A DNA stretch of 12,230 bases from an uncultured Lachnospiraceae bacterium (GTDB lineage: Bacteria; Bacillota; Clostridia; Lachnospirales; Lachnospiraceae), in contig CAMALN010000023.1 of the NCBI GenBank assembly GCA_945836565.1, positions 1 to 12,230 on the forward strand, given 5' to 3'. Positions 515-8,826 of the stretch are shown piece after piece. The notes beneath the pieces were generated by a model, which ran no database searches, was not told the DNA's origin, and worked only from the letters and a program-made list of their open reading frames with translations. A program made the translations under genes and the position numbers. The number at the start of each line of letters is the position of its first letter. Positions within the stretch are counted from its first letter, which is position 1.

Positions 515-901
515 ATGAGTGGTATAATATATGATGCAAGACTAATAAAAGCGATGGAGGGCCTTCAGATGCTAGGCGAGTATGCGGGCGAGGAGCAATC
601 GTTCATAGACGAGCTGTGGTCGGGGCTCATTATGGATTCAGAGATGATGACAGAATTCGTGTACTATCTTGATAATCATTGTATTCTGGACAGAGTGAAG
701 GTGCAGGGATATGGCCTTTCTGATATGTATTTTCATCTGATGTGGCAGTACAATGTGATGCATGATTTAGGTAAGAATAATTCGGATTGCGACAAAGAGC
801 GGATTATGCTACATGCATTTGCAGATGTTATGGCGATGAAGAAGGAGCCTGAGAAGTATATATCAAGATTTGACGATAGAGGACTGGACAAATTCATTTG
901 A
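515..901 (+). CDS. Uncharacterised 128-aa soluble protein
   Basis: I do not recognise this family. The ORF opens with AGGAGGG (503-509) six bases before ATG and is intact. The protein is acidic, rich in Met, Tyr and Asp, with no signal peptide, no membrane segment and no obvious metal or nucleotide motif. It looks largely helical, for example an amphipathic N-terminal stretch around residues 8-30 and another around 90-115. It follows the tyrosine phosphatase by 14 bases, so it is probably made from the same mRNA. That link is only positional and does not establish a shared pathway. No terminator-like hairpin is visible in the 150 bases after the stop. Confidence 0.8.
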   Translation: MSGIIYDARLIKAMEGLQMLGEYAGEEQSFIDELWSGLIMDSEMMTEFVYYLDNHCILDRVKVQGYGLSDMYFHLMWQYNVMHDLGKNNSDCDKERIMLHAFADVMAMKKEPEKYISRFDDRGLDKFI

Positions 902-1907: not shown

Positions 1908-2726
1908 ATGAAAGAAAAGAAGCAAAAAACGGGTATCGTTGTGTGGATACTGTCACTTATTGCACTTTTGGTGGCGAGTATAGCACTGAATAAGCCCGGA
2001 GGAAAACCTGAGACCATACAGGAGGTTATGAAGGATGCGGTATTGCATGAGCATAACAAGCTATCGCTATTTGGCATCATAGATGTGAATCCGGCGGTTG
2101 TTTCGGCATTTACTGTTACCGGAATATTACTGGTGTTTGCACTCATTATCAGAATATTTGTGATACCGAAATTCAAATATGTGCCGGGCAAGCTACAGCT
2201 TCTGCTGGAGAGCTGGGTTGGATTATTCGACGGTCTGGCAAAGTCAAACAGCCCCCACAGGAACGGATTTTTGGGCCTGTATGTATTTTCGGCAGGAACG
2301 TATATATTCACCAGCACATTGTTTGAGCTTTTGGGATTGCAGGCGGTTACGACCGGCGGGATATCTATTGCATTGCCTGCACCGATTTCCGATGTAAATG
2401 CAGCGATTGCACTTGGATGTCTGTCGTATATAGTAATTTTATCAGGTGGTATAGCGGGAAATGGATTGAAGGGCGTAGGACGTACCCTCAAGGATTTTTC
2501 TCTTCCTATATCAATGAGCTTCCGTTTGTTCGGAGCACTCTTAAGTGGCTTGCTTGTAACGGAGCTTGTATATTATTACATTGCGCTTAGCTTTGTACTT
2601 CCGGTTGTGGTGGGTGTGCTGTTCACACTGCTTCACGCATTGATTCAGGCATATGTCCTGACTATGCTCACGGCTCTTTTCTACGGAGAGGTATCGGAGA
2701 GACATGAGCGTGTAGCTGTGGCATAG
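1908..2726 (+). CDS. atpB: ATP synthase F0 subunit a
   Basis: Integral membrane stator subunit that forms the two ion half-channels against the c ring (272 aa, normal length). It opens with a basic N-terminus and a first membrane segment at about residues 9-27. The essential arginine is in SFRLFGALLSG, Arg206, equivalent to E. coli Arg210. In the last helix Gln247 (HALIQAYVLTMLTALF) matches E. coli Gln252, and Glu219 lies in VTELVYYY. The usual Asn of FRLFGN is Ala here. The upstream LPAPISDVNAAIALG segment matches the P-T/x-x-D-x-N motif of the family. Ribosome binding site GGGAGGTG (1891-1898). It is the first gene of the operon; no atpI is seen before it. atpE follows after 41 bases. Confidence 0.96.
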   Translation: MKEKKQKTGIVVWILSLIALLVASIALNKPGGKPETIQEVMKDAVLHEHNKLSLFGIIDVNPAVVSAFTVTGILLVFALIIRIFVIPKFKYVPGKLQLLLESWVGLFDGLAKSNSPHRNGFLGLYVFSAGTYIFTSTLFELLGLQAVTTGGISIALPAPISDVNAAIALGCLSYIVILSGGIAGNGLKGVGRTLKDFSLPISMSFRLFGALLSGLLVTELVYYYIALSFVLPVVVGVLFTLLHALIQAYVLTMLTALFYGEVSERHERVAVA

Positions 2727-2767
2727 GATTGATAACATAGATTATATAAGATAAAGGAGAAAACATT

Positions 2768-3148
2768 ATGAAGAAGATTACTGGTTTGAAGAGTATTATC
2801 AAGAGAGCAGGTGCAATGCTTGCAGTAGCAATGGTTTTGGCTATGAGCCTTGGTATGACTGTATCCGCTGAGGAAAAGGATGCCGAGGAAACAGCTATAG
2901 AGGCAACAGCAACAGCTGATTCAACGGTCGGCTCAAAGGCTATGGCAGCCGCTATTGTAGTTGGTATTGCAGCCGCAGCAGGTGCAATCGGTATGGGTAT
3001 GGCTATATCTAAGTCGGCAGAGGGTATAGCACGTCAGCCTGAGGCAGAGGGAAAGATTAGAACCACACTTATGCTCGGACTTGTATTTATAGAGACCGCT
3101 ATCATTTATGCACTTATCGTAGCGATACTTATCATATTCGTTATGTAA
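2768..3148 (+). CDS. atpE: ATP synthase F0 subunit c with signal peptide-like extension
   Basis: Rotor ring subunit that carries the transported ion. Typical c subunits have about 70-90 residues; this one has 126. Residues 1-34 look like a signal peptide: basic N-region, hydrophobic core at about 16-32, and VSA just before Glu35. An acidic linker follows (about 35-56, many Glu, Asp, Thr, Ala). The conserved hairpin is then complete: helix 1 at about 58-80, polar loop ARQPE (88-92), helix 2 at about 99-125 with ion carboxylate Glu109 in [12 protein letters not shown]. Cleavage would leave an outside N-terminus, which agrees with known c topology. Of the Na+ ligand set, Glu109, Thr110 and Tyr114 are present, but the Gln of helix 1 is Met76, which leans toward protons. 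Ribosome binding site AAAGGAGA at 2753-2760. Confidence 0.95.
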
Positions 3149-3160
3149 GGAGGGATTATC

Positions 3161-3655
3161 ATGAATATTCCTTTGAATATTGATTGGCAGCAGATACTTC
3201 TGCATTTGTTTAATTTTGGCATATTGACGGGTGGTCTGTATCTTCTTTTGTACAAGCCGATTAAGGCTTTTATGGACAAGAGAACAGCTTACTACAAGGA
3301 TATGGAAGCTGCGGCTCAGGCAAAGCTTGCTGAGGCTGAAAATGTAAAGGAACAGTATGATGAGAAGCTTGCCGGTGCTGATGAGGAGATAGCTGTAAAG
3401 AAGAAAGAGACTATGGCTAAGGCAAATGATGAAGCAGAGAAGCAGCTTCAGGATGCAAAGGCACAGGCTGAAAAATACATGCAGAACGCCAGAGAGGATA
3501 TGGCACGCGAGCATGATAGAATACTTGAGGAATCTAAGAAGGAGGTTGCCGAGCTTGCCGTTGAGGCTACCAGAAAGCTCCTTGCACAGACTGCAAAGGA
3601 TCCTTATGAGAGCTTCCTTCAGAATGTAGACGGAGGTGCAGCTGATGAGCACTGA
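3161..3655 (+). CDS. atpF: ATP synthase F0 subunit b
   Basis: Peripheral stalk subunit of normal length (164 aa). One N-terminal membrane helix (about residues 9-30, LLHLFNFGILTGGLYLLLY) is followed by KPIKAFMDKR and a long Ala/Glu/Lys-rich coiled coil (about 38-145) that reaches up F1. The C-terminal segment ends with DPYESFLQNVD plus a short acidic tail; this is the part that contacts delta in other bacteria. Ribosome binding site AAGGAGGG (3147-3154) overlaps the atpE stop. Its 3' end overlaps the preferred atpA start by 11 bases, so b and the alpha fusion are probably translationally coupled. There is one b gene only, so a homodimer is expected. Confidence 0.95.
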   Translation: MNIPLNIDWQQILLHLFNFGILTGGLYLLLYKPIKAFMDKRTAYYKDMEAAAQAKLAEAENVKEQYDEKLAGADEEIAVKKKETMAKANDEAEKQLQDAKAQAEKYMQNAREDMAREHDRILEESKKEVAELAVEATRKLLAQTAKDPYESFLQNVDGGAADEH

Positions 3656-5447
3656 TTCTAAGAATACTAGACTTGCAGCGAGACTCATAAGTGATGTCAG
3701 ACCACAGCCGGCACAGGAGGAGAAGCTGCTTGCATTTCTCAGTAAGAAATACGGCGACGACGTTCGCATGGACTGGGTCGAGGACAAGTCTGTTACAAAT
3801 GGTTTTCGTCTTGAGGTCGGAACTGCACTATATGACGAAAAGTCAGGTGAAGTACTTGACTGGAAATTAAGTGAGGTCTACGACTGGACTCCGGAGGCAC
3901 ACCTTGCTGAGCTTAAGGAAAGATTCGCATCACTTAAGGTTGCGGGAAGCCGCATCATTCCGCTATTACAGGAGGCGGTAAATGACTGGACTCCGAGCTC
4001 CATGGCTACGGAAATAGGAACCGTGCTTACCGTAGGTGATGGTATAGCAACAGTAAAGGGATTGGAGCATGCCTGCTATGGCGAGATTCTTATATTCTCA
4101 GAGGGTATAAGAGGTATGGTTCAGGAGCTTCAGCCTGATTACTTAGGATGTATATTATTTGGTGATGACAGCCTCATATCAGAGGGCAGCGTCGTAAAGA
4201 GAACCGGTAGGACTGCAGGTGTATCTGTTGGAGACGCACTTTTAGGAAGGGTTGTTGATGCGCTTGGTAACCCTATCGATGGCAAGGGAGACATAGCTGA
4301 GCAGGAATACAGACCTATAGAGAATCCGGCCCCGGGCATACTCGAGAGACAGCCGGTAGATACCCCTATGGAGACAGGGCTTCTTGCGATAGACTCGATG
4401 TTTCCTATAGGAAGAGGACAAAGAGAGCTTATAATAGGCGACAGGCAGACAGGTAAGACTGCCATCGCACTGGATACTATATTGAATCAAAAGGGCAAGG
4501 GAGTAATCTGTATCTATGTTGCCATAGGACAGAAGGCGAGTTCGGTTGCCCAGCTTGTGGAGAATCTTAGAAAGCGTGGTGCACTTGATTACACTATAAT
4601 TGTCGCAGCAAATGCAAGTGATTCCGCACCATATCAGTACATTGCACCGTATTCCGGCTGTGCTATGGGTGAGTATTTCATGCACAAGGGCAAGGATGTG
4701 CTTATCGTGTATGACGATTTGTCTAAGCATGCTATAGCATACAGAGCCTTAAGCTTATTGCTTGAGCGTTCGCCGGGACGAGAGGCATATCCGGGAGATG
4801 TATTCTATCTTCATTCGAGACTTCTTGAGCGTTCGGCACATATGTCGGATGAGTGCGGCGGAGGAAGTATGACAGCACTTCCTATAGTAGAGACACAGGC
4901 CGGAGATGTATCGGCATATATTCCTACGAATATCATTTCCATTACCGACGGACAGATATTCCTTGAGAGCAATCTCTTCTTCGCAGGTCAGAGACCGGCT
5001 GTAAATGTAGGACTTTCTGTATCGCGAGTCGGTGGTGATGCACAGACTAAGGCTATGAAGAAGGCTACAGGTGCCATTCGTCTTGATCTTGCTCAGTACA
5101 GAGAGATGGAGGTATTTACACAGTTTTCAAGTGACCTTGATGATACTACCAAGAGACAGCTTGTATATGGTCAGGGTCTTATGGCATTGCTTAAGCAACC
5201 TCAATACCATCCGTACAGCCAGCACGAGCAGGTTGTAATACTGCTTGCGGCCATGGCACATCTGTTCCAGGATGTACCTGTTAAGAAGATTGGTGAGGTC
5301 AAGAACGGACTTCTGGCATATATAGAAGAAAACTGTGGTGAGCTCTGCAGACAGATAGATAAAACCGGATTACTTCCGGATGATGTAAAGAATGAATTAT
5401 TAGATTGTGCGGCGTCCTATATAGAGGATATAAAACAGACTATGTAA
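3645..5447 (+). CDS. atpA: ATP synthase F1 subunit alpha with delta-like N-terminal domain
   Basis: Non-catalytic nucleotide-binding F1 subunit, 600 aa against a usual 500-510. Residues about 120-600 are a standard alpha: P-loop GDRQTGKT (265-272), YDDLSK (356-361), PGREAYPGDVFYLHSRLLER, and the arginine finger Arg461 in SVSRVGG. The extra first 100 residues are not alpha-like. Residues 24-64 line up with the C-terminal half of delta; the segment ending DKSVTNGFRLEVGTALYD keeps delta's DKSV-x2-G-x5-G-x3-D pattern (E. coli delta has DKSVMAG). The N-terminal helical domain of delta is absent. Residues about 101-118 could replace alpha's own N-terminal helix. ATG 3645 is preferred because GGAGG (3632-3636) is eight bases upstream; the in-frame GTG at 3636 overlaps that site. 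The fusion is inferred from motif match, not alignment software. Confidence 0.95.
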   Translation: MSTDSKNTRLAARLISDVRPQPAQEEKLLAFLSKKYGDDVRMDWVEDKSVTNGFRLEVGTALYDEKSGEVLDWKLSEVYDWTPEAHLAELKERFASLKVAGSRIIPLLQEAVNDWTPSSMATEIGTVLTVGDGIATVKGLEHACYGEILIFSEGIRGMVQELQPDYLGCILFGDDSLISEGSVVKRTGRTAGVSVGDALLGRVVDALGNPIDGKGDIAEQEYRPIENPAPGILERQPVDTPMETGLLAIDSMFPIGRGQRELIIGDRQTGKTAIALDTILNQKGKGVICIYVAIGQKASSVAQLVENLRKRGALDYTIIVAANASDSAPYQYIAPYSGCAMGEYFMHKGKDVLIVYDDLSKHAIAYRALSLLLERSPGREAYPGDVFYLHSRLLERSAHMSDECGGGSMTALPIVETQAGDVSAYIPTNIISITDGQIFLESNLFFAGQRPAVNVGLSVSRVGGDAQTKAMKKATGAIRLDLAQYREMEVFTQFSSDLDDTTKRQLVYGQGLMALLKQPQYHPYSQHEQVVILLAAMAHLFQDVPVKKIGEVKNGLLAYIEENCGELCRQIDKTGLLPDDVKNELLDCAASYIEDIKQTM

Positions 5448-5460
5448 GGTGGGTGACTGT

Positions 5461-7757
<2,297 letters not shown>

Positions 7758-7813
7758 AATCATTGCACAGTTTGGATATATATAGTAGACTAGAAAGAAG
7801 GGATGAGTGAGTC

Positions 7814-8227
7814 ATGGATACATTTCAGATAGCCATTTTGGCGGCAGACAGGGATTTCTACGAGGGCTTATGCGAGTCGCTGGTTGTGCCGACTCTTGAA
7901 GGACAGATAGGCATACTTGCTCATCACAGTAACCTTATAGAAGCGATAGTTCCGGGCAGATTAACATACACCATTCCGGGGGAAAAGCCAAGATATGCAT
8001 TCGTGTCAGAGGGCATGCTGAAGGTTGAGGACGGAGAGGTTTTAGTTCTTGTGGACAGTGCTGAAAAGCCTGAGGAAATTGATGAAAACCGTGCGAAAAG
8101 GGCTGAGGCCAGAGCGAAGGAGGCATTGCTTCAGAAGAAGAGTCACAGGGAGTATCTGGAGGGACAGATGAGACTTTCCAGAGCTATGAATAGATTAAAG
8201 GTTAAACATGATATAGACAATATATAG
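7814..8227 (+). CDS. atpC: ATP synthase F1 subunit epsilon
   Basis: Rotor foot subunit that links gamma to the c ring and can regulate hydrolysis (137 aa, normal). The N-terminal beta sandwich runs to about residue 85, with conserved EGQIGILAHHSN (29-40) and the SEGMLKVEDGEVLVLVDSAE segment. The C-terminal helical pair begins with IDENRAKRA (89-97), which fits the I(L)DxxRAxxA nucleotide-binding motif described for Bacillus-type epsilon, so ATP-dependent positioning of this domain is plausible. An AAGGG at 7798-7802 lies upstream of ATG 7814. It is the last ATP synthase gene; the next ORF begins 29 bases after the stop with no terminator-like hairpin between. Confidence 0.95.
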   Translation: MDTFQIAILAADRDFYEGLCESLVVPTLEGQIGILAHHSNLIEAIVPGRLTYTIPGEKPRYAFVSEGMLKVEDGEVLVLVDSAEKPEEIDENRAKRAEARAKEALLQKKSHREYLEGQMRLSRAMNRLKVKHDIDNI

Positions 8228-8256
8228 ATAACTATATTTAATAATTGGAGGCTACT

Positions 8257-8826
8257 ATGAATTGTAAGGTGTGTGGTGCACAGATAAACGGCAATGAGCA
8301 ATATTGCCCTGTGTGTGGAGCTTTTCTTGACAGTTTTACGAATGTTGATGCGTCAAAGATAATTTATAATCAGAGTGAGTCGGAACAGCTTATAGCAGGT
8401 GATGACAGCGTAACGGAGCTTATACCTGAGAATTACGGTCAGGTAGAGGGAAATGATGATGAGACAGAGCTTATACCTGAGAATTATGGACAGGTAGAGG
8501 GAGACGACAGCGTTACTGAGCTCATACCTGAGAATTACGGTCAGGTAGAGGGAGACGACAGCGTTACTGAGCTCATACCTGAGAATTACGGTCAGGTACA
8601 AGGAGATGACAGCGTAACACAGTTTATACCACAGCCTCAGGTGAGAAGTGATGCCGTATATAATGCTGCACCTAATAATGTAAATTATAATTTGAATTAT
8701 AGTGCAAATACTAATGCGACTAACACCGGAGATATGAAAAAAGGGGGTTCTGCCGGTGCTATAGTGGGCATAGCTGTAGGTCTTGTTGTGATGGTTGCGG
8801 TTGCACTTATATTGATTTTATCATAG
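8257..8826 (+). CDS. Zinc-ribbon protein with 17-residue repeats and C-terminal membrane anchor
   Basis: Unnamed protein (189 aa) in three parts. Residues 3-20 form a zinc ribbon: Cys3-x2-Cys6 and Cys17-x2-Cys20 in CKVCGAQINGNEQYCPVCG. Residues 48-125 hold four copies plus a partial fifth of an acidic 17-residue repeat with core DDSVTELIPENYGQV. After an Asn/Tyr-rich linker, residues about 166-188 form a single hydrophobic segment ending at the C-terminus, preceded by MKKGG, so a tail anchor with a cytoplasmic N-terminus is likely. Start ATG 8257 has GGAGG at 8247-8251; a TTG at 8245 is in frame but overlaps that site. Function is unknown. The invariant Thr in each repeat could be a phosphorylation or FHA-binding site, which is speculation. 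It sits between atpC and a chemoreceptor gene, which starts 43 bases downstream. Confidence 0.85.
   Translation: MNCKVCGAQINGNEQYCPVCGAFLDSFTNVDASKIIYNQSESEQLIAGDDSVTELIPENYGQVEGNDDETELIPENYGQVEGDDSVTELIPENYGQVEGDDSVTELIPENYGQVQGDDSVTQFIPQPQVRSDAVYNAAPNNVNYNLNYSANTNATNTGDMKKGGSAGAIVGIAVGLVVMVAVALILILS
8398..8631 (+). repeat. 51-bp coding tandem repeat, 4 units plus a partial fifth
   Basis: Units start at 8398, 8449, 8500 and 8551, with a partial unit at 8602. Each encodes 17 residues around TELIPENYGQV. Units 3 and 4 are identical except for the last codon (GAG versus CAA), which points to recent duplication. Unit 2 is the most diverged (NDDETE in place of DDSVTE). The frame is kept throughout, so copy number can change without breaking the gene. 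Confidence 0.95.

What the first reader, a model, noticed from the sequence alone, without database searches (positions are those of the whole stretch)
3645..4001. A delta-subunit fragment appears fused to the N-terminus of ATP synthase alpha
The first 100 or so residues of alpha are extra. They contain a segment ending DKSVTNGFRLEVGTALYD that keeps the delta/OSCP C-terminal pattern DKSV-x2-G-x5-G-x3-D. Only the b-binding C-terminal half of delta seems kept; the N-terminal six-helix domain that normally docks delta to alpha is missing, which would be unnecessary if the two are covalently joined. The b-delta fusion of mycobacteria is known; I do not recall a published account of a delta-alpha fusion.
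Basis: partly seen in the sequence, partly recalled or inferred. Interest (0 to 1): 0.78.

Follow-up and report, generated by a model that had tools for sequence, protein, structure and literature searches.

The report
Stalk anchor fused to ATP synthase alpha
A gut-type bacterium's second ATP synthase carries the stalk-holding half of its delta subunit welded onto the alpha subunit, which should put three stalk anchors on every motor; the same design was built in the laboratory in 2025 to make an ATP synthase with several stalks, and here it occurs naturally in many bacteria.

Summary
Residues 1-97 of the window's ATP synthase alpha (ATG 3645) are a delta/OSCP C-terminal domain: PF00213 E=1.4e-5, profile 97-159 of 172; PF00213 hits 104 of 105 aligned fused relatives; structure matches are delta/OSCP. 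The delta N-terminal domain is absent and the operon has no atpH. The alpha N-terminal helix is kept.

One exists: Ueno et al. [quoted passage not shown]

New here: about 73 of 397 genomes of the window's family carry delta-alpha fusions, as do other families and classes. Intermediates with a whole delta fused to alpha exist. A single origin of the truncated form is rejected. In 20 of 20 chosen genomes the fused alpha is the only F-type alpha found and no free delta is found, so every alpha carries an anchor.

Most likely: a natural F-ATPase with three stalk sites, possibly multi-stalk with a raised ion/ATP ratio. Stalk number is inferred, not shown.

The parts
3645..3935 (+). delta/OSCP C-terminal domain (residues 1-97) at the N-terminus of alpha; holds an insertion (residues 63-78) that most aligned relatives lack
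   Evidence: PF00213 at residues 4-65; predicted strands and helices 6-97 and delta/OSCP structural matches; alignment A1
3948..3995 (+). retained alpha N-terminal helix region (residues 102-117, SRIIPLLQEAVNDWTP), joined to the delta domain by a short linker
   Evidence: comparison with free alpha N-termini; helix 104-113 or 105-113, low confidence
3996..5447 (+). alpha core: beta-barrel, nucleotide-binding domain with GDRQTGKT, C-terminal domain
   Evidence: PF02874, PF00006, PF00306, TIGR00962 742.8 bits; invariant residues in A4
3161..3655 (+). atpF, b subunit (expected partner of the delta domain)
   Evidence: PF00430 3.8e-18; over 88 loci, residues 121-160 have 2.0-2.5 bits per column against 1.7-1.9 at 71-100
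1908..2726 (+). atpB, a subunit
   Evidence: PF00119 2.5e-18
2768..3148 (+). atpE, c subunit with an N-terminal signal-peptide-like extension
   Evidence: PF00137 7.4e-15 from residue 59
5449..6366 (+). atpG, gamma subunit
   Evidence: PF00231 4e-90
6363..7757 (+). atpD, beta subunit
   Evidence: TIGR01039 790.6 bits
7814..8227 (+). atpC, epsilon subunit
   Evidence: PF02823 4.4e-20, PF00401 2.5e-12

Best explanation
The window encodes a complete F-type ATP synthase (a, c, b, delta-CTD-alpha, gamma, beta, epsilon) in which the b-binding half of delta is covalently part of alpha. Shown: the domain identity, the loss of the delta N-terminal domain, the lack of a free delta gene in the operon, and, in chosen related genomes, no other F-type alpha and no free delta found. 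Inferred: each of the three alpha subunits offers its own anchor for a b2 stalk, because the delta N-terminal domain, which sits on the threefold axis and by Ueno et al. limits ordinary enzymes to one stalk, is gone. The enzyme can then hold up to three b2 stalks, each bringing an a-subunit, so more ions pass per turn of the c-ring and ATP can be made at low ion-motive force, or a steep gear is available for ATP-driven pumping. This is what Ueno et al. measured for the same architecture built in Bacillus PS3.
For: Domain. No atpH between b and alpha. In 20 of 20 chosen genomes with one F-type alpha, the fused one, PF00213 finds nothing above its cut-off outside the fused gene; two of these are single-contig genomes. 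No sign of an internal start that would make unfused alpha: ATG plus Shine-Dalgarno-like motif in 4 of 109 genes, below a background of 0.112 per block. b C-terminus moderately conserved. Repeated loss of the delta N-terminal domain: one origin of the truncated form rejected, p-AU 2.2e-28; at least 10 losses on the best tree if it cannot be regained. Engineered equivalent: up to three stalks by cryo-EM, H+/ATP 5.8 against 3.0 (PMC12229609).
Against: No stoichiometry or structure of any natural member was found in the searches made. a and b are single genes in the operon, so multi-stalk assembly would depend on expression. The engineered enzyme averaged two stalks, had lower pumping activity than the wild type, and few particles showed three stalks. 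Lineages with a whole delta fused to alpha are common (28 of about 73 fused genomes have an open frame of 660 aa or more), so fusion does not always go with loss of the axial domain. b C-terminal conservation is only modest and one mid-stalk block (101-110) is as high. The junction is modelled with low confidence (pLDDT under 50 at 97-121). c-ring size is unknown.
Confidence: 0.55

Rival explanations
1. Single-stalk tether: the fusion only replaces the docking job of the delta N-terminal domain. One b2 stalk binds one of three delta domains and the other two stay empty; the ion/ATP ratio is ordinary.
For: One gene each for a and b in the operon. Lineages with whole delta fused to alpha suggest that fusion alone can be kept for tethering. 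Supply of a and b2 could limit stalks (inference).
Against: The engineered equivalent took up about two stalks on average (PMC12229609). I found no reason in the sequences why two anchors should be dead, but the b interface was not examined residue by residue.
Confidence: 0.35
2. Mixed enzyme: the fused alpha works together with alpha or delta from the canonical second operon, for example one fused alpha plus two ordinary ones, giving one anchor.
For: The window genome and a same-genus genome (G180) also hold a canonical operon with a full delta.
Against: 20 of 20 chosen genomes with the truncated fusion as sole F-type alpha show no other alpha and no free delta. The fused operon is complete by itself.
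Confidence: 0.05
3. Dual translation: an internal start makes a short alpha without the delta domain, restoring one anchor per F1.
For: Residue 120 of the window protein is Met; 13 of 109 genes have some in-frame start codon with a Shine-Dalgarno-like motif near the junction.
Against: Only 4 of 109 have ATG plus motif, fewer than the background rate of 0.112 per block. Met at residue 120 is not conserved.
Confidence: 0.04
4. Not real: chance similarity, a frameshift or an assembly error joins two genes.
For: Weak single-sequence score: 22.0 bits in the whole protein, just under the Pfam cut-off.
Against: PF00213 in 104 of 105 relatives; in all 80 named loci the alpha core is preceded in frame by about 100 to 160 residues, among them two records whose titles name a strain and no MAG, An867 and NE2001; own ribosome-binding site in the window.
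Confidence: 0.01

Closest known systems
Engineered Bacillus PS3 deltaDeltaN-alpha FoF1 (Ueno et al. 2025, PMC12229609; PDB 9jc1)
   Same: Delta C-terminal domain joined by a short linker to the alpha N-terminus, delta N-terminal domain absent, no free delta. Best PDB match of the A3 profile (E 1.8e-12, chain residues 4-101).
   Different: Designed, from a thermophilic bacillus, epsilon C-terminus removed. The window enzyme is natural and its epsilon keeps the C-terminal helix domain (PF00401).
Natural Acidaminococcus fermentans delta-alpha fusion (and UniProt G4Q3K6, A0A1I2C5T3) named in the Discussion of PMC12229609
   Same: Delta-alpha fusion lacking the delta N-terminal domain, by the paper's words.
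   Different: The Discussion gives no survey, tree or intermediates; its supplement was not read. I did not obtain its sequences, so whether it shares an origin with the window's clade is untested.
b-delta fusion of Mycobacterium and Gordonia
   Same: Delta joined covalently to a neighbouring subunit (PMC5709465, passages); the A3 profile matches its C-terminus (7jg5_d).
   Different: Fused to b, not alpha. One copy per enzyme with delta kept whole is recalled, not tested.
N-ATPase (alternate F1F0; TIGR03324 and kin)
   Same: F-type operon without a free delta (PMC5709465, passages).
   Different: Window subunits score below the N-ATPase cut-offs (TIGR03324 614.8 against 750.5).
Canonical F-ATPase of the same genome (contigs C179, C115)
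   Same: Same kinds of subunits in the same order apart from the fusion.
   Different: Free 180-aa delta (PF00213 1.5e-41) and ordinary alpha N-terminus; c subunit with GIGQG at the ion site.

Membership tests
F-type ATP synthase, alpha subunit (atpA) | atpA equivalog score and the three alpha domains with P-loop GDRQTGKT | tested here: met
   TIGR00962 742.8 bits against 484.45; PF02874, PF00006, PF00306; G265-K271 of the P-loop invariant in A4
Delta/OSCP C-terminal domain (PF00213) | Profile match above the curated cut-off over the C-terminal part | tested here: met
   25.5-25.7 bits against 22.3 for residues 1-122 alone; 22.0, just under, in the whole protein
Delta/OSCP C-terminal domain (PF00213) | Same fold as solved delta/OSCP C-terminal domains | tested here: met
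Full-length delta subunit (atpH) | N-terminal six-helix domain, profile 1 to about 95 | tested here: not met
   Match begins at profile position 97 and the gene starts 3 residues before the match; nothing above the cut-off elsewhere in 20 of 20 chosen genomes
deltaDeltaN-alpha multi-stalk FoF1 (Ueno et al.) | Delta C-terminal domain fused to alpha, no delta N-terminal domain | tested here: met
deltaDeltaN-alpha multi-stalk FoF1 (Ueno et al.) | More than one b2 stalk and a-subunit per F1; raised ion/ATP ratio | not testable with these tools
   needs cryo-EM, native mass or equilibrium measurements
N-ATPase | alt_F1F0 exception models above cut-off | tested here: not met
   TIGR03324 614.8/750.5, TIGR03305 589.6/752, TIGR03321 49.9/224.7

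The most novel reading that the evidence does not exclude
Nature invented the multi-stalk F-ATPase repeatedly: in gut Clostridia and other Bacillota, delta was fused to alpha and its axial domain then dropped, many times over, giving enzymes with two or three stalks and a-subunits and an ion/ATP ratio two to three times that set by the c-ring. Hosts with two F-ATPases would own two gears.
Probability: 0.45. Interest if true: 0.92.

Novelty: new member of a known kind. Interest (0 to 1): 0.7.

Why it matters
By Ueno et al., the delta subunit is why ATP synthase has a single stalk. If this natural enzyme carries several, the rule of one a-subunit per motor, and with it ion/ATP = c/3, is not universal, and energy budgets of common gut anaerobes must be redrawn. 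The clade offers natural enzymes, from whole-delta intermediates to genomes where the truncated fusion is the only F-type ATPase found, on which the 2025 prediction can be tested directly.

Tried and rejected
Dual initiation: tested, not supported.

A relic of the delta N-terminal domain upstream of the fusion in genome G062 (hit 22-170 with one stop): the ORF ending just before the fused gene is the b subunit, so I took the extension as chance.

Single origin of the fusion: in both trees free-delta rows nest among fused rows. The AU test rejects all fused rows as one clade (p 4.8e-12) and all truncated ones (p 2.2e-28). The groups were set by architecture, but the tests were run after the trees had been seen. 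Whether the fusion arose several times, or once and was split again, is not settled: unordered parsimony needs only 2 changes between fused and free. These are quick trees, and 36 of 93 inner branches are weak. Only 19 of the 80 named loci went into the trees. Left out of the second tree: L271, L232, L234, L122, L126, L086 and L224 (near copies, fragments, or a long branch); left out of the first: L204, L225-L231 and L245 (no full alpha, or duplicates of other loci).

Literature: searches found nothing; some searches listed papers of which none names a delta-alpha fusion in its title (only PMC5709465 was looked into, passages only); led to PMC12229609.

Full report
What is there. The window is contig C23 of a draft genome (1.64 Mb, 71% complete, 3.8% contamination). 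Genes at 1908-8227 encode a, c, b, alpha, gamma, beta and epsilon of an F-type ATP synthase, with no separate atpH. Alpha is 600 aa from ATG 3645, which has GGAGG 8 nt upstream and overlaps the stop of b. Its first 122 residues alone hit PF00213 (OSCP/delta) at E 1.4e-5 over profile positions 97-159 of 172, above the cut-off; inside the whole protein the hit is 22.0 bits, just below it. NCBIfam delta models hit the same region at E 1.2e-4 and weaker, far below their cut-offs for whole delta. The rest is an ordinary alpha (TIGR00962 742.8 bits).

Anatomy. Residues 1-97 are the delta C-terminal domain. Residues 102-117 (SRIIPLLQEAVNDWTP) correspond to the N-terminal helix of free alpha subunits of relatives (such as EEIISILKEEIENY). 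So alpha keeps its own N-terminus and delta has lost its N-terminal half. In the relatives L031 and L038, with free subunits, the order is b, delta, alpha, so the fusion joined neighbours.

Distribution. The window's family is probably Lachnospiraceae (contig G120:C1 and the named record L096, Lachnospiraceae bacterium UBA3804, both have 121,746 bases). In 397 genomes of that family, my hand count from the rows is 72 with an uninterrupted frame of 570 aa or more and a match starting at profile position 10 or earlier; G335, whose row shows a stop but which is fused, makes 73. G089 and G147, cut by contig ends, were not counted. Of these 73, 28 have a frame of 660 aa or more. Among 391 genomes of the class, 29 rows meet the same criteria at E up to 1e-20; G475 (509 aa, cut) and G516 (match from position 19, fused) make 31, ten of them in the window's family and the others in 13 further families. 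Among 398 genomes of the phylum, four outside the class carry fusions: G1045, G855, G940 and G839; that listing was cut, so more may exist. In all 80 the alpha core is preceded in frame by about 100 to 160 residues, and my own delta profile found no separate delta ORF of 100 aa or more on the plus strand. That profile recognised the fused domain itself in only 19 of 80, but 75 of the 80 are in A3, where Pfam hits 104 of 105. Titles include Anaeromassilibacillus senegalensis An867 and Lachnospiraceae bacterium NE2001 (not labelled MAG), and MAGs named Roseburia, Mogibacterium, Faecalibacterium and Erysipelotrichaceae.

A series of states. Free delta plus alpha: L031, L038, L205-L218. Whole delta fused to alpha: L034, L035, L185-L195, L232-L234, L275. 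Fourteen of the 28 long-frame family genomes were looked at in detail, and all 14 match my delta profile from positions 11-50 onward. Six whole fusions sent to Pfam match PF00213 from position 5-35 to 170-172. Of four truncated ones in the same call, three match from 100-102 onward and one, L202 of the same genus as the window, only below the cut-off (18.7 bits). On a tree of alpha cores (96 rows, quick method, many weak branches) the window lies in a group of 40 truncated fusions (support 93). Free, whole-fused and truncated forms intermix in a neighbouring group of 38 (support 94). Holding all truncated fusions as one clade is rejected (p-AU 2.2e-28), as is holding all fusions (4.8e-12). If the lost domain cannot be regained, the best tree needs at least 10 losses. 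The number of fusion events is not settled, since a whole fusion can be split back into two genes.

Stoichiometry. Of 44 fusion genomes searched for alpha subunits, 27 hold one, the fused one; of 17 earlier ones, two of which are not fused, five. These sets were chosen, partly for weak delta scores, and are no random sample. From them 20 single-alpha genomes with the truncated form (82-100% complete) were searched with PF00213. In 20 of 20 nothing outside the fused gene passes the cut-off. The fused domain itself passes in 19, G277 only with neighbouring pieces; G293's is below. Sub-threshold matches elsewhere have E 0.01 to 0.2. The same-genus control G180 (100% complete) shows a free delta at 1.3e-44 and the fusion at 21.5 bits, below the cut-off. 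G420 and G668 are single-contig genomes. In-frame ATG with a Shine-Dalgarno-like motif at the junction occurs in 4 of 109 genes, below background. So in these organisms every F-type alpha found carries a stalk anchor: three per F1, given the known alpha3beta3 build.

Mechanism. Ueno et al. 2025 (PMC12229609; abstract, passages and the whole Discussion read) argued that the delta N-terminal domain, on the threefold axis, limits the enzyme to one stalk. They fused the delta C-terminal domain to alpha and saw up to three stalks and a-subunits, an average of two by SDS-PAGE, H+/ATP 5.8 against 3.0, and ATP synthesis at low pmf; triple-stalk particles were rare and pumping activity was lower. They add that Acidaminococcus fermentans has such a fusion and is highly likely multi-stalk. 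The window enzyme has the same build. Across 88 loci the b C-terminus (121-160) is somewhat better conserved (2.0-2.5 bits) than residues 71-100 (1.7-1.9), as expected if b still binds the delta domain, though block 101-110 is as high. I infer three anchor sites (likely) and more than one stalk in the cell (about even odds). The use would be ATP synthesis at low ion-motive force in fermenting anaerobes, or a second gear beside the canonical enzyme, which the window's genome also has. No stoichiometry of a natural member was found in the paper searches; the library lacks most subscription journals.

Verdict. The kind is already in print as one engineered enzyme and a short passage on natural cases.

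Noticed in passing
window 2768-3148: The c subunit has a signal-peptide-like N-terminus and an acidic stretch before its two membrane helices; among 87 loci of the clade most c ORFs run to about 104-158 aa from the first start codon. The ion site reads [10 protein letters not shown], without the Gln seen in the canonical copy.
   Followed up: partly
window 8245-8826: ORF just after epsilon: zinc-ribbon-like start (PF13240 6.1e-5, below cut-off), 4.5 copies of a 51-base repeat encoding DDSVTELIPENYGQVEG (8401-8630), hydrophobic C-terminus.
   Followed up: partly
L042 (contig C168 of the window's genome), 2-2346: A second gamma-beta-epsilon set close to the window's (beta 90% identical): a second copy or contamination by a relative; the contig begins inside gamma, so its alpha is not seen.
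   Followed up: partly
L034, L035, L185-L195, L232-L234, L275: Whole delta fused to alpha, so three delta N-terminal domains per F1 that could not all sit on the axis. How such enzymes assemble is unexplained.
   Followed up: partly
window 3831-3878 (residues 63-78 of the alpha protein): An insertion in the delta domain (YDEKSGEVLDWKLSEV), shared in part by P0003 and L027 and absent from the other 15 rows of A1.
   Followed up: no
window 515-901: 128-aa ORF with no Pfam match at E up to 10.
   Followed up: no
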